Source of the DNA: a virus
IMG/VR virus record: IMGVR_UViG_3300023179_000046
Location: 1-64,000 of that record
Length of the DNA stretch: 64,000 nt
Direction: 5' to 3' (one strand)
In this document: piece by piece, positions 2,783-31,230 of the stretch
Layout: the number at the start of each line of letters is the position of its first letter
Numbering within the stretch: position 1 is the stretch's first letter
Program-made: the position numbers and the translations under genes
The notes under the pieces: generated by a model
Databases searched by the model: none
What the model saw: the letters and a program-made list of their open reading frames with translations, nothing else
What the model was told of the DNA's origin: nothing

Positions 2783-3304
2783 TTACCATTCAGGCTGCTT
2801 CCAGATGGGCATAAACTCTCCATCGGAATTCTTAGTGTATAGCACCTTCTCATTTCTGAGAAGTGCTTCTAGTTCTGCCTTGGACGGAATATCATGATGA
2901 GTAATTTGTCCATCATGCCTCGGACGCCCACGGTGAACCGTTAAAAAAAACTCTCTAACTTCACGAATGTCATCTTCGCTAAATAAATATCTAAGTAATC
3001 TATTAGTGCCATCTAGAGACATAGCAGTTTGTGGCTTTCTAATATCTCCCGCGAGCAAATGTCTTTTGACAGTATCAATGTGCCTGTTAACGAGACGAGC
3101 CACCTGTCCAGTAGTATAAGCACGTTGCCTACGATTATATGCATCTGCTAAATTATAGGCAACGCGCTTATTCATCTTAAAGTTCCAAGCGACTAAAATA
3201 TCTTCGGATTTATTTGCTTGTAGAGTTTTATGTAGATCGCCGTTCAGGTAGAAATAATTCCATGCCTGCCGCGATTTTTTCTGCGTTCTAACTCGTTTAA
3301 CCAT
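2783..3304 (-). CDS. helix-turn-helix DNA-binding protein (MerR/excisionase-like)
   Basis: Residues about 66-95 (TTGQVARLVNRHIDTVKRHL) form a MerR/Xis-type winged helix-turn-helix: an alpha-1 stretch of the form TTGQVA, a turn, then a recognition helix with T-V-K-R-H. The N-terminus is strongly basic (KRVRTQKKSR). It could be a transcription regulator of the late/replication unit or a DNA architectural protein. There is no integrase nearby to pair it with as an excisionase. The start at 3304 lies within the 3' end of the zinc-ribbon gene (61-base overlap). Confidence 0.65.
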   Translation of the reverse strand: MVKRVRTQKKSRQAWNYFYLNGDLHKTLQANKSEDILVAWNFKMNKRVAYNLADAYNRRQRAYTTGQVARLVNRHIDTVKRHLLAGDIRKPQTAMSLDGTNRLLRYLFSEDDIREVREFFLTVHRGRPRHDGQITHHDIPSKAELEALLRNEKVLYTKNSDGEFMPIWKQPEW

Positions 3305-20281: not shown

Positions 20282-21358
20282 CTAAATCTCCACAAACTGA
20301 ATACTCATATCAACATAATCTGTTGTATAAAATCTTTTATTTATAGTATAGGTAAAATCTTTCATAAAAACTTTCATCACATCACTAGATACTGCTGGAC
20401 CAACAACGGCGGGGGACAAAGAGGTTAAATTCTTATAAAAGGCAGAGGGCGAACTAATTATATAGCCATTGCCAGTATATCCAATTGACTGAGTGGCATC
20501 AGGATAAGAACCTATATTCTGTGCTACGAATAAATTATTGTTAATAATGCTAGTTACTGTCCAGTTACCATTAATATTTGAATACCCGCCCTCCACGCTT
20601 TTAGTATTAGAAATACCAACCACCATGCCTGTTTGAATAAAATCAGTATTATCAATATTAAACGTACAGTACCCACTAGAAGTATTGTAAGAGTTAAGAT
20701 GAAACCTTGCGGGAGAATTACCACTCATATTAAAGTTAAAATATAGTTGTAAATAATTAGCCGACGCACCTTTGCCCTGTAATTTCCATACGCCATTAAA
20801 CATTTGATCTACACCATTAACATAAATATATGGAGAGTTTGCGACAGTAATTTCATTTCTTGCCGTTGTCACAATTGTTGCAGTAGACACACCCGCCGAA
20901 GCAGCAGTCATAGCAACCCTATCAATAATATAGGGAACAGCCGAAGCACTCGTTACATTATTAAAATTTAAATAACTGTCATTAGTACCATCAGCATTAT
21001 TCCAGTTCCAATTCTCAGAAGCATAAGATAACTTAATCCAAATAGGTTTATTGTAGTTTTGTTCATAGAAGGACTTTAGCCATGCCGCCCCCAAATTACC
21101 ATCTGATGTATAAAGTTTGCCGCCAGCGGCGGGAACCATATTCCAGTTAACAGAAATATTCTTCTTATTGGCAGTAACATACTTCCTTAAAGTACCATCA
21201 GCCATCCTAGAGGCATCCTCAACAGTCTCATAAGTAATCTGTAAAGGATCACGATTATGGTCAGTCAAAGTAAACGGGGTCAACAAATCATTAGGAGCAT
21301 TAGTATTAGGAATGTTAGGGTCAACAGTAAAAATCTGCAACATTGGAGTTAGAATCAT
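20282..21358 (-). CDS. distal tail protein (Dit-like)
   Basis: 358 residues between the tape measure and the tail hub, where siphoviruses encode Dit. It begins with a beta-rich ring-type domain (PFTLTDHNRDPLQITYETVE) and has an inserted carbohydrate-binding-like region (about residues 120-300). It ends with a strand set characteristic of such proteins (TINKRFYTTDYVDMSIQFVEI). The ATG at 21358 overlaps the tape measure stop (TAATG). Assignment is mainly from position. Confidence 0.6.
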   Translation of the reverse strand: MILTPMLQIFTVDPNIPNTNAPNDLLTPFTLTDHNRDPLQITYETVEDASRMADGTLRKYVTANKKNISVNWNMVPAAGGKLYTSDGNLGAAWLKSFYEQNYNKPIWIKLSYASENWNWNNADGTNDSYLNFNNVTSASAVPYIIDRVAMTAASAGVSTATIVTTARNEITVANSPYIYVNGVDQMFNGVWKLQGKGASANYLQLYFNFNMSGNSPARFHLNSYNTSSGYCTFNIDNTDFIQTGMVVGISNTKSVEGGYSNINGNWTVTSIINNNLFVAQNIGSYPDATQSIGYTGNGYIISSPSAFYKNLTSLSPAVVGPAVSSDVMKVFMKDFTYTINKRFYTTDYVDMSIQFVEI

Positions 21359-24300
21359 TAACCTAATCTCCTATTAGTCCCCATAGCACTATCCCGCCTC
21401 TTAATAGTTCTCAATACTTTATCTGCAATCTCATCAGCGGAAGCATTACTGCCTGCAACGTTGACATTTATATTATACTCCACATTACTAGTATTACTAA
21501 TATTGGCATCACGAAGTTTAGCGTTCTGACGATTAAGCATTTCCTCTGACCTCTTTAAATCAGAACGATCAGCAAAACCTACATTAGAATTAAGTTGGTC
21601 AAAGAAGGCTGAACCATATTTTTTAACCGCCCCGGCACGCATAACATACTCGCCATTAGACAGCCGAGCCTTGACTCTATCATCGCTACCACCACCGGGG
21701 CCGGAAACTAAACCACCATCAGCAAAACGGAAAGCAGCATTAAGGTTACCGCCAGTCACCTTCATGTTTGAATAATCAAACCCGTCCCAGTCATCATCGT
21801 ATACTTGCTTAAGAGTAGGTATAGATGCAGCAGTACCAACAGAAGCCCCGCCGCTAGAAGGAGTACCCGCAGCCTTGCCACCGAAAATAGACAAAGGTTT
21901 CCCATTGTTACCAATCCAAGGAACCCGACCGCCAGACTCACGTTGAATCAAATCAGGAATATTCTTCCAAGCAAAGTGCAGGTGGGGGGAGGTCATCGTT
22001 CGGCCCTTTACAGGAGTTTTTTGCACACCACCGCGACCTAAGGATTCACCGGCCCGAACTTTACGCCCTGTCACTACATCAGGATTCATGTGAGCATATC
22101 TAATAGTTCCACCCAAACTATTAACTTCAACCCAACCGGGAAGATAGAACGGATCACCCGGCGCTCTACCAACCCTAGAAACTGTACCAGAAACTAATGA
22201 TCTAAAATCTTCGCCAAGAGGGGCATGAATGTCATTGACACCCCCATTGGAGGCTCCCCACCATCCTTCTGCGTGCCGACCACCACGATTATAGTACCGC
22301 CCATTTGTTACAGTGGTGGCTCTTACAGGAGGGGACCAATTATTACTGCTAGGAACATCATTGGCGGGGCCACCAACAAAACCGCCGGAAGCAAATCTAT
22401 TTTTATTAATTGCATCTAGCATTCCCCTTCCATAAGACTTAACTGAATCTGCCTTAATCACATATTCACCATTAGATAGACGAGCGGGAATATCATCAGA
22501 AGTACCTGTTCCCGGCCCTGAAATATATCCACCCTCAGCAAATGGTAGGGTCCGGCCTCCACCGTTTGGCGCTGGCGTTGGTTTTGGTCTATCTGCTCCC
22601 GGCTTCAAATTCCAAATAAGTTTACCGTCTGAATCAATAGTTACAGATATGTCTGGAAATTTCATATCCGTAATGGTGCCATTTGAATTAATAAAAATTG
22701 TATTTGCAGGGTCGGCTGTGTAGTCAGCCCAAGTTTTTTGAACTGCTTTAATTTGTGCAGTAGCCACGGCCTCTGCCTTGGGGGGAAGTTTCTTAACTGC
22801 CTCCTCTAACGCTTTAGCCGCCGTATCAATTTTATCCGTATTGCCAGTCATTAGGGCTTCTAGATATTTGGTTTGTGCGGTCTGAACCGCAGTCGAAGTT
22901 TTTTGAGCATTAGTAGCAGCATTCTCTAACTGTGTTTGAAGGACGCCCATTCTTTTCTGAGCAGCCGCATTTGACTTTGTTAAAGTCTTTGACTCAGCCT
23001 CAAAAGCCTTATCCCTAATGCCAGCCAACTTATTGATAGTGTCAACTCTCTCATTAAGTTTAGTTATTTCTTCCTGAGTAGAATCAAGTTTAGCCTGATC
23101 CTTTTCATCTGCCGCCTGCTTCTTCTTTAACTCTGCTTGCTTATCCAACTCAGCATTATAGGCACTCTGAGCAAGGGCGGCACCCAAAAGGTCACCATCA
23201 TTACGAGCCTTATTAATATTAAGCATTAAGCCTTCAAGAGTTAAATCTTGTTGGCGTTCCTGATCCTTCTTATCAAATAGTTTTTGGCGGGCATTCATTT
23301 CCTTCCGAATAGTATCCATATACTTATTCTTAGCCTTAATAGTGTCCTGAATGCCCTCTACTTCTTTATCATCTTTTTCCTTAAGCCTGTCCCTTTCCTC
23401 ATTAATCTGTTCCAAGCGGGCATTATTTGAATCAATACCGGCTTGCTCGTTTTTAAGGCTCCTAGAATATCCAGCAGAAGTTTCAGCGTAGATAGCATTA
23501 GAAGAAGTAACTTGTCCAAAGTCAGCCTTCTGCCCTGCCTCGCCACGGCGACCGCCCCTACTGTAATCTTCCTTACCATTAAAAATACCTTGAGTTTTGC
23601 CAAACATTGCATTTTCATTATCAACTGCTGTCCTGAAAGCGGAATCTTCAACATATGCTTTAGAAAAATTGACCCGCGCGGCCTCTGTCTGAAAGACAAT
23701 TCCAGCACCAGAAAAAGCATTTTGTACCGCGCCTAAAGACTGAACAAACAATTTGGCGCGGGCATTAGAATCTTCAAATGACGTAGCCACTGTTTGCATT
23801 TCAGTGGACATACCCTGAGTCATTCCTTTAACTAATAATGATATGCCTTGCGGGTCGTTGCCTGCTGCCGCAAAGGAGGCCTCTACTGCTCCCTTAAATT
23901 GCTCAGGGCCAGCCAATAGGGCATTTTGCAGATTAGCAACAATAGTTTTATTTGCTACGTCATACGCATTAACATATTTCTGTATTCCCGGTGCATAGTT
24001 TTTTAGATTATCAAGACTACCATTAATTTCTTTCATAAATGCTGCCCACTTGTCGTTGACCCCATTAATGTCATCCTCAGTAGTAATACCGGCTATTTTT
24101 GCAGCATTGGAAATATTATTGTCACTATTATTGACTAAATCGGCCCCTGTACGATTGCTTCCCATTGCATCCGTGATCTTGGCTATATTGTCGCTCTTAG
24201 TAAAATCACTTACATTAAAATCTTTTAAAAACTGAAATCTTTTTAATGTTGCATCTGAAAATGCAGTTTCATTTACAAATTCCGACAAGGGACGACGACC

Positions 24301-27300
24301 AGTGGGAGACATACTATTCTGCGGTTCCTCAATACCAAGTTTATTGCCTTGTGAATTATATGCAGCAGTAGCCTTTTGTATAGCATAATCGTAATCTTCT
24401 TTAGCATACGCAATAGTTCGCTCTAGTTCACCCTTCTGACCAAACATACCATTAACAATGCCAGAAGTTGCTTCACTCTGACTACCCTTTTGTATGGCCT
24501 GCTTTAAAAATTCATCTATTTTAGATTGGTCCCCATTAGTTATTAATTCAAGTATTTTTTCTTGAGTTACGCCTATCCCCTTTAACTTATCCCAATCCTC
24601 TACGCTAATTTGTTTAACAAGTGCTGTTTGTGCTGCGGAATTGCCGACAGTTATTGGCTTACCTTCACTCGTTAAATTATTAAATACTTTCTCTCCCGCG
24701 CCTGCGTAATATTGCTTAAATGCTTCGCTAGCAGTATCTTCTGGTTTTGTATTTTTATAATTAGACTCAAAATCCTTTACCATATTTTTTGCAATAGTTT
24801 CAGGAATACTAGCATTTTTAGCCAACGCAAGGACAACTTGGGATGCTTTTTCTAAAGTCCCGCCAGCCATCAAAATATTGTCATATTGAACTTTTAGATT
24901 ACCCTTTTGTTGTTCTGGCGTACCACCCTTAAGACTTTCAATTAAATTTTTGGTAGCATCAGTTCCATTAGCAAAGGCCTGAGCAAGATTATCAACTGCC
25001 GTTCTAAATTTATCAGTAACACCACCCATACCAGAAAATATTGATTTTGTTTTACTGAAAGAAAGACCAACCGTATTTAAAACATCCTGTGATCCAGTCA
25101 TTGTAGCGATATATTTTTTAGAAGCAGCAATACTACTATTAATAGCATTAGCCATTTGTCTTTCTTGTTCTTCCTGCTTTCCCTTAATGCCACCAATAAT
25201 GGCACCGCCAATAAGACCCGCCGCCATGCCATAGGGACCAAACATAGCACCAATTCCAAGGCCAGACATAGCCCCGCCCAAAGCGCCCGACACAGCGGTC
25301 TGACCACCAGCCTTTTCAGCCATATTAGCAGAAGCAACAGACCCTATCCCCGAAGCCCCCATAGCCCCCATAGAAGCCATCATGCCCACGCTACCCATCA
25401 TGCCGCCCATGCCGCCAAAGCCACCCCTTCCCTTACTCATGAGGCCACGTTGCTTGGCTTGTTCCTTTCCTGCTTCACGATCAACTTTATATTTTTCTTT
25501 TGCCGTTTTTAATTGTTCTTTCATTCCTTGAAGGTTTTCTTCATTTGCCTGTATTTGCTCTAGAATATTATCTGACACTTCGGCACCCTGTTCAATCATC
25601 TTTTGAGCAGTAGCCTGTAGAAGTTTTTGTTTCTTTTCCAATAAGGAAACTTCTTCTTTAAGTTGTTCAACAACGGTAGAGCCACCATTGACAAAACCCC
25701 TAACCTGCCCGCCATGACTAAACTTTTTAGCATTAATATTATCAATAAAGCCCTTACCATAGTGACCTACAGCATCAGCATTAATAACATATTCTCCATT
25801 GGAAAGAAGGGCGGGAATTAGATCATCTTTAGGACCGCCCGCCCCTGAAATATAAGAACCATTAGCAAAACCCATAACGCCTTTTGCCCAACCACGCGCA
25901 TCATTCAGGTGGCGTGTAGTTCTAGATGCATCAGACATTTTTGAAAGCAATTGCATGTTTGAGTTATATTGATCTACCCCACCCTCTAAAATTCTATCCA
26001 TAAAAGCAATTGATTCTTTTTCATATCGCCTCTGTGGATCAAACAATGTTGGTGTATTTCCAATCATAAGGTTAGTTGGATTCTCAGAAAGATGCATTAA
26101 AAATTTTTTGAATTCTAATGCTTCGGAATAAGTTGAAAATTGCCCTCTATATTTAAAAACATTGTTTGTTAATGGAAAATTTTTCATAAGTTCAGGATTG
26201 TCTTTTGACAAATGATACATTTGCCTAAGCAATTGATTTAATTCGCCCCGAACTAAAACAGTATTTCCTTCAACATATGGAATTTTTTCTCCATTTTCAT
26301 CGACTCCGTAAATATGTGATCTCTCAAAACCTGAACCTTGCCTACCACTAGCCAAGTTTCTAATTCTCATTCTTGCTTTTATTTCATTATCTTCGTCAAC
26401 TTTGCCCGCGCCCTGTAAATAAGCAAATTGTTGCAATTCATTTCTTGAACCGTCAGCAGCAGAAATTGCTCTATATAGTGCTGAACCTATAGATCGTGAA
26501 AATCTTCCAATGCCGCCGCCAATTCCAAATTTTAATATTCCACCATTTTTAAGGCCAGTAACCATAGCCTCAGAATACAACTTAGACATAAAACCGGGGC
26601 TATCAACAACACCATGACGCCCGTTATCAAAAACGCCAACATTATGATAATATCCTCTTAATACCTGCCAAAGTCGGCCCTCAACACCAATATCTGTTCC
26701 ATCAGATTTTAATAAGTTATAACGCTCGCTAGGGGACATTAATGCGCTTGCATCATTACCCGGCATAAAAAAGTTTTTAGCGTCAGATTTTCCATCAAAC
26801 CATTTCTCATATTTAGCCTTCTTTATTTCAGAAAAAGGAATACCATATTTCTTCTCAAAGTAGGCTTTAGCAAATTCTGCTTCATCTATTGAAATACCGG
26901 ATCTATTAGTATCCAAAGCCACCGGCCCGCTCATTAATCTACTATCATCAATGTCTCTGTCCGCAAATCGGTGACGCATAGCAATATCACGCAAAATTGG
27001 CTGAGCGTCTTGCAAGCCCCTAGGCTCAGCAAGCATACTCATAAAAGTACTCCAACCAGTATTCGGATCATGGTCCCTTGGATTAGCAGACAAACCACTT
27101 CTATTTATATACCTACTACCCAATTTAGAAAGCATTGCAGAATCAATAATAAATTCGTGTTCCTGCCTTGCCCCCGAATAGTTAGCACCCTGAATACCAA
27201 GAATCGCAGACTTAGGAACATCCATTTCAATTAATCTACCAGTAGTATTACTGTAACCATCACCACGCGCAAAATTAGCAGCAACAGAAGGATTAAGAGA

Positions 27301-30300
27301 CATAGAAATATATTTAGCAGAATCTTCCAAAGCACCACTAGAGAAACCATAATTCCCCATAGCATCCTGCCTCTGGTCCGCGCCCGCCCTCACAGCACGA
27401 TAAAGCCTTACGGTGTCACCCGGCATAGAATCTAATAACTCTGCAATAGAAGCCCGACCCTTAGCAATAACTGCTGGATCAAGAGAAGCCAAAGGCCGCT
27501 TGTCGCCCTGCCCCATAACGGCTAAAGAAGCATGAGCCTCCAAAGCATCACGAAGCATTTTTTCTTCTTCTGTATTTTTATAAGAGTGATTCTTTAATGC
27601 ATCCAATAAATCTTGCGTACTAATATTAGTTTTAGCGCCGAGCCGACGAGATTCAAAAAATTTATCTATATCCTTGCCCATATAGGCACTTTTATCTGAC
27701 TTCAAATAAGATTCAATAACATCATCATTAAATCTATCTGAACCGGCAGGCTTAAATATATCCATAAGCGACTTTGGAAATAGTTTACCTGTAGATAGCC
27801 TATTTATAATTCCGGCAATTCCACCAGAAGCAAATTTCTTAGCATTAATGGACTCCATAAAGCCTTTACCGTAATGCCCAACAGCATTAGCGTTAACGAC
27901 ATACTCTCCGTTAGAGAGAAGGGCAGGGATAACATCATCTCTAGGCCCGCCCGGTCCAGTAATATGACCACCCGATGCGAACTTCTTGCCACCGCCCCAC
28001 AGTCGGGCCACGGCAGCATCACGTTGGGCAGCAGCAGCGCGTGACGCAGCAGCAGCAGATTCAGCCTGAGCCGCCCTACGAGCAGCATCATCAGCAGCCT
28101 TAGCGGAACCAGTGGCCCACAAGGTAGACACAAAGGAAGATGGGCGGGCATTAGTCGGGGATACCGAAGCCGCTGCCGCAGCCTGCCTAACACTATTAGA
28201 TGCCTGATTAATTTGTGTAGCCAAAGTTTGAGAGGTTGACTTAATAGTATTAGCAAATTCAGCGAACGCCCGAACCGTTAAATCAATTCCACTAGTTGCA
28301 ACAGTAGCAGTATGAATAAGTCCCGGCGTCTGATTACGCATACCTTGACGCACAGCATCGGCCTGCTTTTGTCCAGCCTGACCAGAAGCAATACTTAAAT
28401 CTTTCTGCATACTTGCACTAAGAGAACTAAAAACGGAAGTGTAGGCTGTAGACAATGACTGTGCAAATGCTGTGGTAACTGCCCGCAAATCTTTAGCGGT
28501 TACACCTGAACCACCAGAAGCAACAATGGCCTGCTCGGTACTCTTGAATGCATCATTATACATAACGGCAACATCTCTAATGGCCTCCTTTCGCATTTTT
28601 TCCCAATTGTCTACTCCTAAAGATGAAGCAAACCAAGCCTGAACCTGCTCAGGGGATCTGCCAGCAGCAGCGATCTTAGCAAATTTTTTACCAATCTCAG
28701 GGTCAGCCTTTTCTAATTCTTTTAAAGCCCGCAGCGTTGCTAGTTGTTCGCCAGAGAATCTACTTGCGTTAATGACACCTAATTCTGGCGCAGCCGCCTT
28801 AATGTTGGCCTCGGTTGGCTTAATCTTTAAGTCATCTAAAACTTCTGAAATAATTTTTGAAGTCATCATGTGTGGAGGAATCAAAGGTAGTGCTTGATCT
28901 TGATTCCTTTGATTAATGATATCCCCCATGCCGCCTTGTCGGGTCCAAGTGCCGGGGACAATAGCCATAGACCCAAACATTTGTTGAGTCATTTCGTTAG
29001 GGACCATATGGGAGAATACTGTCCCTGAGCCATTCTTAGGGTCGCCTAATGCGTATCTACCAGATTGAGCCTTTTCTTGATTAAAGTAAATCTGAGACGG
29101 CCTAAGGCCTTCTTTAATAACATCAGCAACATCTGCCGGTCTACCAGTAAAAATTAATGGAGCGCCCCCTGAGCCTCCACCAGAGGGGCGAGGGCCACCG
29201 GGGATGAGTAAGCCTCCAGCGGGACCACCGGGGCCGGGAGGTTTAGGTCCAGCGCCAGCATTGATTGCTGCAATTCTATCAACCTGTGCCGCGTAGTCTT
29301 GAAGGGCACGGGTAAATGCAGACATAATTTTTTGTTGTTGATTCATCTGACGTGAAACGTTATTGTTTAATTTTTCTGTTGCTAACTGAGCCTTATCAAT
29401 TTCTTCAAAATAGTTGCTAAGGTTTTTAAGGCCAGCGGTAAAGGAGGTAAAGGGATCTTTAAACCCGCCCCCCGCCGAAAAACCCTGCTTAAACATTCTC
29501 ATGGTGTTTTGCATCTTAAACATTTGTCCCATAAGGTTAGTTAAAAGACCCGCAAACATGAGGACGGGGCCGAAGATAGCCGCACCACCCAAAAGCCCAC
29601 CAATAATATATTTCAGCGGACCTAGTTTTTGGAATACGTTAATAATAGAAGTAACAGTATCTAAAGTTTTAGAAGCAAGGTCAAGGAATACTTGACCAAT
29701 GGGGAGAAGTGCGGTTTTAAAACTTTCTAGGGCACGATTAAATTTACCAGAACTAGACTGTTGTAGAATTTCTGTTTGCTGCTGTGCTACATCGTTTAAC
29801 TGCTTTTGGCTCAACGTCATCATATTCATGACTTTGGCTGACTGTGTACCCTTAGCGTTAAAGTTATCTAGAAGGGCCGTAATACGAGCAGCCTGATATT
29901 TACCAAAGAGTTCTGAAATGGCCTGTGAGCGTTGGACTCCAGAAAGTTTACCTAACTCAACCTGTAATTGTTGAACCATGCCAACAACATTACCCTCATT
30001 AGCCTTAACTAAACCTTTAATGTCTATACCAAATTGTGAAAGTCTTTCCGACGCAGCCTTAGTTGGGCTAACTAATCTCTGCATAGAGTTCTTTAAAGCG
30101 TTAGCACCCTCAGTTGCGGGAACACCGCCCTCTTTCATAGCAACAATAAATGCAACAGTGTCCTTGTACGACCCGCCCAAGTTTCTAATAATTGGACCCA
30201 CGCGCGGGATGGCCTCAATTAAGTCTTTCATCGTTGTAGAGGTAGCAGCCTGTGCTGCTGAGAAGAAGTTCATAGCCTCAGCAGTCTGCTCAGTGCTTAG

Positions 30301-31230
30301 CCTATATGCGGTCTGTAAAGAAATGGTTGCTTTCATAGCAGATTGTTGATCTGTCTCACCCAAAACCATACCCTGCGTAACTGTTTTAGTTAAACCTAAT
30401 AATTGATCTTGTGTGTATCCTGCTGCTGCTAGGGCAGCCGCGACGCCAGTAGTATTAGCAGCGGACTGCCCATACATATTGGCTAATTCAGCAGAAAGTT
30501 CTTGAACCTTACCCTTAATCTCATTAAGGGCGTCAGCCGAAGGTAAAGAGGCTGAGAATTTTTCTCCCGCCTCCCCACCAACACCATAGGCTCTTTGCAA
30601 GGCCTGCATGCCCTTATCGACTTCATAAAACATTTTAGCCAAAGCCGCGCCGGATGCTAAAATTGGAACAGTAAAACCAACCATCAACTGACGACCGGCC
30701 CACTGAGTATTCTTACCAAGATTAATCATATGGTTAGCGGCATCACGCATAGTTGTATTTAAAAGTTGTTGCTGGATGCGGGTAACTTGAAGTTGCTTCC
30801 CAAGTTGCTCAGTGTTAGTAATAACATGAGCAAAGCCACCCTTAGTGGTAGAAGGAATAACGTTAGATTGTAAAATTTGTGCCTGAGCCTGAGCAACACG
30901 ATTAAGAACAGGAATAACTTCCTGTCCCCGATTTTTATAGATTTGAAAATATTGCTCAGTAGATAAACGACCACGATTAATTTTGTCTGTTAAGTTTTGT
31001 GTAGCATTAGATAACTTAACAGTTTCAACATTAAGGCCTCTTACAGAACTTAAAGTGTCTAGAAAAGATGCTTCTGCGCTTTTTAAGTTAGTCTGAATAT
31101 CCTTAGAGTAGGCTGTGCCGAATCTTTGGTTCGACAAATTAGCCATCGAAGCGCGTAGTTGAGCCAACTCCTTATATACAGGAGCAAAATTGGCAGTACC
31201 TACGAGTTCAATATTGATTTTTTCAGACAA
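21358..31230 (-). CDS. tape measure protein with LytM peptidase and ADP-ribosyltransferase-like module
   Basis: 3290 residues; the usual 0.15 nm per residue predicts a tail near half a micrometre. Residues about 180-430 are the TP901-type tape measure domain (GAGLTKTV-type helices, MKEGGVPATEGANALKNS). A motif of the form GPGGxxDDxIPAxLSNGEYV plus YGxGF recurs four times (near residues 1100, 1800, 2920 and 3185) and seems to punctuate modules. Residues 1265-1385 carry YRAV, SMSLNP and QEHEFII, an R-S-E signature. Residues 1930-2030 are Gly/Met/Ala-rich and membrane-like. Residues 2975-3105 are an M23/LytM peptidase (RH, ND, YAHM, HLHF). TTG start 12 bases after GGAGG. Confidence 0.92.
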   Translation of the reverse strand: MSEKINIELVGTANFAPVYKELAQLRASMANLSNQRFGTAYSKDIQTNLKSAEASFLDTLSSVRGLNVETVKLSNATQNLTDKINRGRLSTEQYFQIYKNRGQEVIPVLNRVAQAQAQILQSNVIPSTTKGGFAHVITNTEQLGKQLQVTRIQQQLLNTTMRDAANHMINLGKNTQWAGRQLMVGFTVPILASGAALAKMFYEVDKGMQALQRAYGVGGEAGEKFSASLPSADALNEIKGKVQELSAELANMYGQSAANTTGVAAALAAAGYTQDQLLGLTKTVTQGMVLGETDQQSAMKATISLQTAYRLSTEQTAEAMNFFSAAQAATSTTMKDLIEAIPRVGPIIRNLGGSYKDTVAFIVAMKEGGVPATEGANALKNSMQRLVSPTKAASERLSQFGIDIKGLVKANEGNVVGMVQQLQVELGKLSGVQRSQAISELFGKYQAARITALLDNFNAKGTQSAKVMNMMTLSQKQLNDVAQQQTEILQQSSSGKFNRALESFKTALLPIGQVFLDLASKTLDTVTSIINVFQKLGPLKYIIGGLLGGAAIFGPVLMFAGLLTNLMGQMFKMQNTMRMFKQGFSAGGGFKDPFTSFTAGLKNLSNYFEEIDKAQLATEKLNNNVSRQMNQQQKIMSAFTRALQDYAAQVDRIAAINAGAGPKPPGPGGPAGGLLIPGGPRPSGGGSGGAPLIFTGRPADVADVIKEGLRPSQIYFNQEKAQSGRYALGDPKNGSGTVFSHMVPNEMTQQMFGSMAIVPGTWTRQGGMGDIINQRNQDQALPLIPPHMMTSKIISEVLDDLKIKPTEANIKAAAPELGVINASRFSGEQLATLRALKELEKADPEIGKKFAKIAAAGRSPEQVQAWFASSLGVDNWEKMRKEAIRDVAVMYNDAFKSTEQAIVASGGSGVTAKDLRAVTTAFAQSLSTAYTSVFSSLSASMQKDLSIASGQAGQKQADAVRQGMRNQTPGLIHTATVATSGIDLTVRAFAEFANTIKSTSQTLATQINQASNSVRQAAAAASVSPTNARPSSFVSTLWATGSAKAADDAARRAAQAESAAAASRAAAAQRDAAVARLWGGGKKFASGGHITGPGGPRDDVIPALLSNGEYVVNANAVGHYGKGFMESINAKKFASGGIAGIINRLSTGKLFPKSLMDIFKPAGSDRFNDDVIESYLKSDKSAYMGKDIDKFFESRRLGAKTNISTQDLLDALKNHSYKNTEEEKMLRDALEAHASLAVMGQGDKRPLASLDPAVIAKGRASIAELLDSMPGDTVRLYRAVRAGADQRQDAMGNYGFSSGALEDSAKYISMSLNPSVAANFARGDGYSNTTGRLIEMDVPKSAILGIQGANYSGARQEHEFIIDSAMLSKLGSRYINRSGLSANPRDHDPNTGWSTFMSMLAEPRGLQDAQPILRDIAMRHRFADRDIDDSRLMSGPVALDTNRSGISIDEAEFAKAYFEKKYGIPFSEIKKAKYEKWFDGKSDAKNFFMPGNDASALMSPSERYNLLKSDGTDIGVEGRLWQVLRGYYHNVGVFDNGRHGVVDSPGFMSKLYSEAMVTGLKNGGILKFGIGGGIGRFSRSIGSALYRAISAADGSRNELQQFAYLQGAGKVDEDNEIKARMRIRNLASGRQGSGFERSHIYGVDENGEKIPYVEGNTVLVRGELNQLLRQMYHLSKDNPELMKNFPLTNNVFKYRGQFSTYSEALEFKKFLMHLSENPTNLMIGNTPTLFDPQRRYEKESIAFMDRILEGGVDQYNSNMQLLSKMSDASRTTRHLNDARGWAKGVMGFANGSYISGAGGPKDDLIPALLSNGEYVINADAVGHYGKGFIDNINAKKFSHGGQVRGFVNGGSTVVEQLKEEVSLLEKKQKLLQATAQKMIEQGAEVSDNILEQIQANEENLQGMKEQLKTAKEKYKVDREAGKEQAKQRGLMSKGRGGFGGMGGMMGSVGMMASMGAMGASGIGSVASANMAEKAGGQTAVSGALGGAMSGLGIGAMFGPYGMAAGLIGGAIIGGIKGKQEEQERQMANAINSSIAASKKYIATMTGSQDVLNTVGLSFSKTKSIFSGMGGVTDKFRTAVDNLAQAFANGTDATKNLIESLKGGTPEQQKGNLKVQYDNILMAGGTLEKASQVVLALAKNASIPETIAKNMVKDFESNYKNTKPEDTASEAFKQYYAGAGEKVFNNLTSEGKPITVGNSAAQTALVKQISVEDWDKLKGIGVTQEKILELITNGDQSKIDEFLKQAIQKGSQSEATSGIVNGMFGQKGELERTIAYAKEDYDYAIQKATAAYNSQGNKLGIEEPQNSMSPTGRRPLSEFVNETAFSDATLKRFQFLKDFNVSDFTKSDNIAKITDAMGSNRTGADLVNNSDNNISNAAKIAGITTEDDINGVNDKWAAFMKEINGSLDNLKNYAPGIQKYVNAYDVANKTIVANLQNALLAGPEQFKGAVEASFAAAGNDPQGISLLVKGMTQGMSTEMQTVATSFEDSNARAKLFVQSLGAVQNAFSGAGIVFQTEAARVNFSKAYVEDSAFRTAVDNENAMFGKTQGIFNGKEDYSRGGRRGEAGQKADFGQVTSSNAIYAETSAGYSRSLKNEQAGIDSNNARLEQINEERDRLKEKDDKEVEGIQDTIKAKNKYMDTIRKEMNARQKLFDKKDQERQQDLTLEGLMLNINKARNDGDLLGAALAQSAYNAELDKQAELKKKQAADEKDQAKLDSTQEEITKLNERVDTINKLAGIRDKAFEAESKTLTKSNAAAQKRMGVLQTQLENAATNAQKTSTAVQTAQTKYLEALMTGNTDKIDTAAKALEEAVKKLPPKAEAVATAQIKAVQKTWADYTADPANTIFINSNGTITDMKFPDISVTIDSDGKLIWNLKPGADRPKPTPAPNGGGRTLPFAEGGYISGPGTGTSDDIPARLSNGEYVIKADSVKSYGRGMLDAINKNRFASGGFVGGPANDVPSSNNWSPPVRATTVTNGRYYNRGGRHAEGWWGASNGGVNDIHAPLGEDFRSLVSGTVSRVGRAPGDPFYLPGWVEVNSLGGTIRYAHMNPDVVTGRKVRAGESLGRGGVQKTPVKGRTMTSPHLHFAWKNIPDLIQRESGGRVPWIGNNGKPLSIFGGKAAGTPSSGGASVGTAASIPTLKQVYDDDWDGFDYSNMKVTGGNLNAAFRFADGGLVSGPGGGSDDRVKARLSNGEYVMRAGAVKKYGSAFFDQLNSNVGFADRSDLKRSEEMLNRQNAKLRDANISNTSNVEYNINVNVAGSNASADEIADKVLRTIKRRDSAMGTNRRLG

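What the first reader, a model, noticed from the sequence alone, without database searches (positions are those of the whole stretch)
27090..27430. ADP-ribosyltransferase-like module inside the tape measure protein
Residues about 1265-1385 carry, in order and spacing, an R in LYRAV, an S-x-S in SMSLNPSVAANFA and an E-x-E in RQEHEFII: the R-S-E triad of ART enzymes such as exotoxins and the T4 Alt/ModA proteins, with the strand LIEMDVPKSAILGIQG between. Tape measures are partly ejected into the host, so the domain could modify host proteins at the moment of infection. It sits between two copies of the tape measure punctuation motif, as a cargo module.
Basis: partly seen in the sequence, partly recalled or inferred. 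Interest (0 to 1): 0.8.

Follow-up and report, generated by a model that had tools for sequence, protein, structure and literature searches.

The report
ADP-ribosyltransferase cargo in phage tape measure
A giant tail protein of an uncultivated phage carries, as an exchangeable insert between two repeats, a domain of the ADP-ribosyltransferase family, and other phage tape measures do the same, so phage tails as well as phage heads may deliver host-modifying enzymes; enzyme activity has not been shown.

Summary
The 3290-aa tape measure protein (window 21358-31230, minus) has R1278, S1309-M-S1311 and E1357-H-E1359 in the order and spacing of R-S-E ADP-ribosyltransferases (ARTs). No Pfam, PDB or NCBIfam model finds the module directly, and the bare triad is near chance (4% of shuffles). 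The longer motif set is not: 2 of 5000 shuffles, 0 of 2725 decoy ORFs. Against 32 viral ARTs the module scores 93% (hhalign E 2.6e-7); other parts of the protein reach at most 1.7%. Caveats: those ARTs were collected with the window's own motif, and the alignment-based AlphaFold model (pLDDT 63) gives only weak matches, mostly to ART folds. The strongest support is independent: other viral tape measures hold ARTs that Pfam recognises (PF10145 plus PF03496 in L168, L186, L215). In all, as here, the ART lies between FxxGG/LSxGEYV punctuation. The last slot swaps M23 (window) for NlpC/P60 (L007). So this looks like modular cargo inside tape measures. Phage ARTs were known in heads (MuF fusions), and enzyme-bearing tape-measure relatives in contractile injection systems (Tme). 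An ART inside a phage tape measure appears undescribed. Activity, delivery and target are untested.

The parts
21358..31230 (-). tape measure protein gene, 3290 aa
   Evidence: PF10145 E 9.5e-33 at residues 249-443; TIGR01760 E 1.5e-28; PHROG tape measure families down to 2.7e-102
29902..30486 (-). PhageMin_Tail domain, conserved tape measure N-terminal part (residues 249-443)
   Evidence: 80 viral relatives of residues 1-620
27811..27981 (-). punctuation repeat copy 1 (residues 1084-1140), FASGGHITGPGGPRDDVIPALLSNGEYVV...
27061..27804 (-). ADP-ribosyltransferase-like module (residues 1143-1390)
   Evidence: hhalign 93.3% probability, E 2.6e-7 against 32 viral ARTs; AF2 model m26d42be3fe18
27142..27438 (-). 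ART core matched by the viral ART profile (residues 1265-1363)
   Evidence: hmmsearch E 3.8e-6, next decoy 0.54
27397..27399 (-). R1278, first member of the R-S-E triad
   Evidence: aligned with the invariant R column of 33 sequences
27298..27306 (-). S1309-M1310-S1311, the STS motif of ARTs
   Evidence: both Ser columns invariant in 33 sequences
27154..27162 (-). E1357-H1358-E1359, the ExE motif; E1359 is the predicted catalytic Glu
   Evidence: second Glu invariant, first at least 90%
26515..26529 (-). internal FxxGG spacer (FGIGG, residues 1568-1572) closing the ART half of the cassette
   Evidence: 7 such spacers against 0.63 expected in shuffles
25873..26496 (-). second, unidentified module of the same cassette (residues 1579-1786)
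   Evidence: no Pfam, PDB or NCBIfam match for regions that contain it
25702..25872 (-). punctuation repeat copy 2 (residues 1787-1843)
   Evidence: 71% aa identity to copy 1
22372..22542 (-). punctuation repeat copy 3 (residues 2897-2953)
21964..22233 (-). Peptidase M23 domain between copies 3 and 4 (about residues 3000-3089)
   Evidence: PF01551 E 2.2e-7
21562..21732 (-). punctuation repeat copy 4 (residues 3167-3223)

Best explanation
The module is a divergent ADP-ribosyltransferase of the R-S-E (exoenzyme, PF03496-like) class, inserted as one cassette of a modular tape measure. Punctuation repeats and FxxGG spacers act as joints between cassettes. The last cassette is a peptidoglycan hydrolase (M23 here, NlpC/P60 in the nearest relative). 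The proposed course: the tape measure lies in the tail lumen, is expelled at infection, its hydrolase helps open the wall, and the ART reaches the cell envelope or cytoplasm and mono-ADP-ribosylates host proteins using host NAD. From the E-x-E motif, arginine is the likeliest acceptor. Shown here: sequence relationship, triad, cassette layout, recurrence in other tape measures. Inferred: fold in detail, activity, delivery, target.
For: Profile of 32 viral ARTs finds the window tape measure at E 3.8e-6, best decoy 0.54, with R, SxS and ExE in register. hhalign with the lone module: 93.3%, E 2.6e-7; 11 other tape measure segments and 5 shuffles at most 1.7%. All nine of the collected ARTs checked in Pfam are PF03496, and the profile retrieves solved R-S-E ARTs such as Vip2 and the C3 group. 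The AF2 model places R in a strand, SxS in a strand followed by a helix, and ExE in a strand, core pLDDT about 72-92; its leading PDB matches are mostly ART folds. Independent tape measures with ARTs: L168 PF10145 7.8e-23 and PF03496 1.8e-15, full R-S-E; L186 1.2e-24 and 4.7e-7; L215 2.5e-22 and 4.9e-5; L245 at E 3e-4 with the local profile. In all, FxxGG spacers flank the ART. M23/NlpC-P60 swap in the last slot. Tape measure ejection and enzyme-bearing tape-measure relatives are published (PMC7296036, PMC11126660, PMC13277306).
Against: No curated model (Pfam, NCBIfam, PHROGs) recognises the module, and no close relative was found in any collection. The reference ARTs were gathered with a pattern derived from this motif; with the motif masked the profile gives only 7.4 bits, rank 2 of 5001 against shuffles. 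Without an alignment AF2 fails (pLDDT 36); with one it may be steered to the ART fold, and Foldseek gives nothing at E <= 0.001. The residue between the serines is Met, not the usual Thr. None of the 80 nearest tape measures retrieved has it. The tape-measure ARTs of L162, L186, L215 and L245 have LYSGI or LYSAI in place of YRG, so some may be inactive.
Confidence: 0.6

Rival explanations
1. ART fold but no catalysis: a domesticated or decaying ART that now serves as a structural or NAD-binding element of the tape measure.
For: Four other tape-measure ART contigs (L162, L186, L215, L245) carry S where the R is expected; the window has M instead of T in STS; the cassette has somewhat lower GC3 than the rest of the gene; the nearest PDB fold match, IcmQ, is from own knowledge a NAD-binding protein with an ART-like fold.
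Against: The window module keeps R, both Ser and both Glu, and L168 has the complete motif set.
Confidence: 0.22
2. Active ART that works elsewhere than in the newly infected host: for example on the producing cell late in infection, or self-modification during tail assembly.
For: Tape measures are made late in the producing cell (established knowledge); nothing here shows delivery.
Against: Association with wall hydrolase cassettes in the same protein and published ejection of tape measures (PMC7296036) fit entry better.
Confidence: 0.1
3. Chance resemblance: an unrelated domain or structural spacer in which R, SxS and ExE fall in ART-like spacing.
For: The bare triad occurs in 4% of shuffles; masked-profile score is weak; poor alignment-free model.
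Against: hhalign contrast of 93% against at most 1.7%, profile rank 1 by five orders of magnitude in E over decoys, and the same kind of cassette position occupied by Pfam-recognised ARTs in other tape measures.
Confidence: 0.08

Closest known systems
MuF-ART head fusions of phages (VIP2-like ADP-ribosyltransferase domain on the MuF minor capsid protein), and T4 Alt
   Same: R-S-E ART on a virion protein, thought to be delivered with the DNA (PMC9503650, PMC7302621; one search shows ART matches annotated as MuF-like fusion, head morphogenesis or capsid maturation protease)
   Different: Carried in the head on MuF-type or internal head proteins; here inside the tail's tape measure between punctuation repeats
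Polyvalent proteins of phages and conjugative elements
   Same: Large virion proteins with strings of effector domains, ART being the commonest macromolecule-modifying enzyme (PMC5512222, PMC9503650)
   Different: Neither paper mentions tape measures; here the carrier is the tape measure
Tape measure-related effectors of contractile injection systems: Tme of Streptomyces davawensis, Sle1 of S. lividans
   Same: Tape-measure-like protein carrying an exchangeable functional domain, endonuclease in Tme (PMC11126660, PMC13277306)
   Different: Bacterial injection systems, C-terminal domain, no ART mentioned in the Sle1 paper; here a phage, internal cassettes
Muralytic tape measures (M23, NlpC/P60 or transglycosylase modules)
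   Same: Enzyme module inside a tape measure; the window itself has M23 and L007 has NlpC/P60
   Different: Act on the cell wall, not on host proteins
Stanwilliamsviridae tape measures (Streptomyces phages TunaTartare, Belfort, Wofford)
   Same: N-terminal 600 residues 31-35% identical
   Different: About 2100 aa, no LSxGEY repeat and no ART found

Membership tests
ADP-ribosyltransferase, R-S-E exoenzyme class (PF03496-like) | R in the first core strand, SxS motif, ExE, in order and with family spacing | tested here: met
ADP-ribosyltransferase, R-S-E exoenzyme class (PF03496-like) | Score above the PF03496 gathering cut-off | tested here: not met
   No hit for the window module, whereas the L168 and L186 modules pass. 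I therefore call the window module ART-like, not a PF03496 member
ADP-ribosyltransferase, R-S-E exoenzyme class (PF03496-like) | Profile similarity to verified family members | tested here: met
   partly circular,
ADP-ribosyltransferase, R-S-E exoenzyme class (PF03496-like) | ART fold | tested here: inconclusive
   ART folds lead the PDB list, none at E <= 0.001
ADP-ribosyltransferase, R-S-E exoenzyme class (PF03496-like) | R, S and E in one NAD pocket | not testable with these tools
   model coordinates are not released to the session
ADP-ribosyltransferase, R-S-E exoenzyme class (PF03496-like) | NAD hydrolysis or ADP-ribosyl transfer | not testable with these tools
   needs the bench
Phage tape measure protein | PF10145 / TIGR01760 domain, very long protein in a virion gene cluster | tested here: met
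Polyvalent protein | Several effector domains in one injected virion protein | tested here: inconclusive
   ART-like and M23 modules found; second cassette module unidentified; injection untested

The most novel reading that the evidence does not exclude
Tape measures of many phages are general cargo carriers: punctuation repeats and FxxGG spacers form joints at which enzyme cassettes (ART, metallopeptidase-like, HAD-like, P-loop, wall hydrolases) are exchanged, so the tail lumen delivers a set of host-modifying enzymes ahead of the DNA, a tail-borne counterpart of head-borne polyvalent proteins.
Probability: 0.4. Interest if true: 0.85.

Novelty: new variant of a known kind. Interest (0 to 1): 0.62.

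Why it matters
Phage-delivered ADP-ribosyltransferases have been tied to the head. If the tape measure, which leaves the tail before the DNA, also carries them, the host could be modified at the first moment of infection, before any phage gene is expressed, and in siphophages that were thought less equipped for protein injection (PMC9503650). It also offers a sequence signature (punctuation repeats) for finding unknown effector domains in the longest genes of phage genomes.

Tried and rejected
Direct searches with the module in Pfam, PHROGs, NCBIfam and PDB sequences, phages, plasmids, viral and genome contigs: nothing. Two pattern scans were one base out of frame and returned only noise; they serve as a random control, 0 ARTs in 33 loci. 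The corrected SxS scan gave 38 hits that passed strict R and ExE filters. A corrected scan for the SMS form gave noise only. The PDB sequence search of the single module returned designed helical repeat proteins, an artefact of the helical stretch. Alignment-free AF2 was unusable. Domain readings by eye for the rest of the cassette and for residues 680-860 found no support in Pfam, PDB or NCBIfam. Pfam on 30 inter-repeat segments gave an enzyme family in only three (window M23, L007 NlpC/P60, L168 ART), so the general cargo claim rests on a few cases. Isolate phages searched with the L168 and L186 tape-measure ARTs gave no tape-measure ART (the single weak hit, Variovorax phage VPv64, sits in a MuF-like protein by eye).

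Full report
What the window is. It lies in a 102,989-base IMG/VR virus record. The gene at 21358-31230 (minus) encodes a 3290-aa tape measure protein without interruption, recognised by PF10145 and TIGR01760, next to head and tail genes. Its first 600 residues are 31-35% identical to tape measures of Streptomyces phages of Stanwilliamsviridae, and 80 viral relatives were fetched, the nearest 51% identical (L007).

Check of the observation. All named peptides are at the stated places. The punctuation repeat, LSNGEYV with its GPGG and YG..N surroundings, occurs four times, at residues 1084-1140, 1787-1843, 2897-2953 and 3167-3223; the first two, which bracket the module, are 71% identical. The bare triad with loose spacing is found in 4% of shuffles of so long a protein, so on its own it is weak; the longer motif set is found in 0.04% of shuffles and in none of 2725 other ORFs.

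Relationship to ADP-ribosyltransferases. No curated family finds the module. I collected viral ARTs through a DNA pattern for the SxS motif, with Thr in place of Met; 38 had the R and ExE motifs, and all nine examined in Pfam are PF03496. A profile of 32 of them finds the window tape measure at E 3.8e-6, next decoy 0.54, aligned over residues 1265-1363 with R, SxS and ExE in register. hhalign of the module alone gives 93.3% and E 2.6e-7, against at most 1.7% for 11 other parts of the protein and 5 shuffles. This is partly circular, because the collection used this motif: with the motif masked the score falls to 7.4 bits, rank 2 of 5001 among shuffles. A profile of the 33-row alignment retrieves solved R-S-E enzymes.

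Fold. Without an alignment AF2 fails (pLDDT 36), though secondary structure fits and the first PDB match, at E 0.26, is IcmQ, which from own knowledge has an ART-like NAD-binding fold. With 66 rows, pLDDT is 63, with the R strand, the SxS strand and helix, and the ExE strand at about 72-92. Its PDB list is led by IcmQ (E 0.033) and is mostly ART folds, but nothing reaches E 0.001; the viral library likewise gives nothing at that level. The alignment may steer the model. Pocket geometry could not be measured.

Independent cases. L168 (contig IMGVR_UViG_3300047319_000941) is a tape measure (PF10145 7.8e-23) with a clear ART (PF03496 1.8e-15; VYRG, FLSTS, EDE), placed directly after its first punctuation repeat and before the second. 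L186 and L215 combine PF10145 with PF03496 (1.2e-24 and 4.7e-7; 2.5e-22 and 4.9e-5, the last just under cut-off), and L162 carries nearly the same ART. L245 and L247 have a divergent one. In all of these and in the window, FxxGG spacers lie on both sides of the ART, and such spacers are several times commoner than in shuffles, 7 against 0.63 in the window. L162, L186, L215 and L245 have Ser in place of the Arg; the window and L168 keep the full set. Whether these are separate acquisitions or old common inheritance was not tested. None of the 80 nearest tape measures has the module.

Cassette view. The C-terminal slot between repeats 3 and 4 holds M23 in the window, and the matching slot holds NlpC/P60 in L007. 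The slot between repeats 1 and 2 holds the ART-like module and a second, unidentified module, parted by FGIGG. Most other inter-repeat segments tested have no Pfam match, so the generality of enzyme cargo is open.

Mechanism. Tape measures leave the tail before the DNA and enter the periplasm or membrane (PMC7296036; discussed in PMC11126660 and PMC13277306). The likeliest course is that the module is expelled with the tape measure and ADP-ribosylates host proteins; ExE points to arginine (own knowledge). A folded domain of this size is a tight fit for a tail lumen (own knowledge), so it may be unfolded or at the tip; PMC13277306 makes a similar suggestion for the globular domain of Sle1. Every step after the sequence relationship is inferred.

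What is known. Reviews place phage ARTs in heads, on MuF or in polyvalent proteins, and do not mention tape measures in that role; isolate records show the same (PMC7302621). Tape-measure-related effectors exist in contractile injection systems. I found no report of an ART in a phage tape measure in the library searched, which lacks most subscription journals. So the parts are known, the combination appears new: a new variant of a known kind.

Noticed in passing
window 28850-29160 (tape measure residues about 691-794): LIFTGRPADVADVIKEGLRPSQIYF...GTVFSHMVP resembles by eye the start of PARP/KptA/DarT-like domains; no Pfam, PDB or NCBIfam support.
   Followed up: partly
window 25873-26496: Second module of the ART cassette with ERSHIYG and NPTNLMIGN stretches, HNH-like by eye only; no database match.
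   Followed up: partly
L168:3-8876:-, residues about 905-1110: HELIH metallopeptidase-like module between the ART and the next punctuation repeat.
   Followed up: no
L186:1-11892:-, residues 1710 and 2661: HAD-like DFDRTL and metallopeptidase-like HEMTH motifs in the same tape measure as the ART.
   Followed up: no
L215:3-4106:-, residue 1296: Walker A motif GVAGSGKTT after the ART in a tape measure.
   Followed up: no
L263:8561-12166:+, residues about 534-650: Segment between two punctuation repeats that looks by eye like a staphylococcal-nuclease-type domain (DGDSYNI...DAPEL...YGYDSFGR); Pfam gave no match.
   Followed up: partly
L162, L186, L215, L245: Tape-measure ARTs with LYSGI or LYSAI where YRG is expected: loss of the triad Arg while STS and ExE stay.
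   Followed up: partly
L135:3-3602:+, L179, L184: Arrays of ART domains: five profile hits in one 1200-aa ORF (L135), and many hits in L179 and L184.
   Followed up: no
phages collection: The tape measure punctuation repeat is widespread among isolate phages (688 records matched a query that contains it, most best hits on the repeat), yet no Pfam family matched over it.
   Followed up: no
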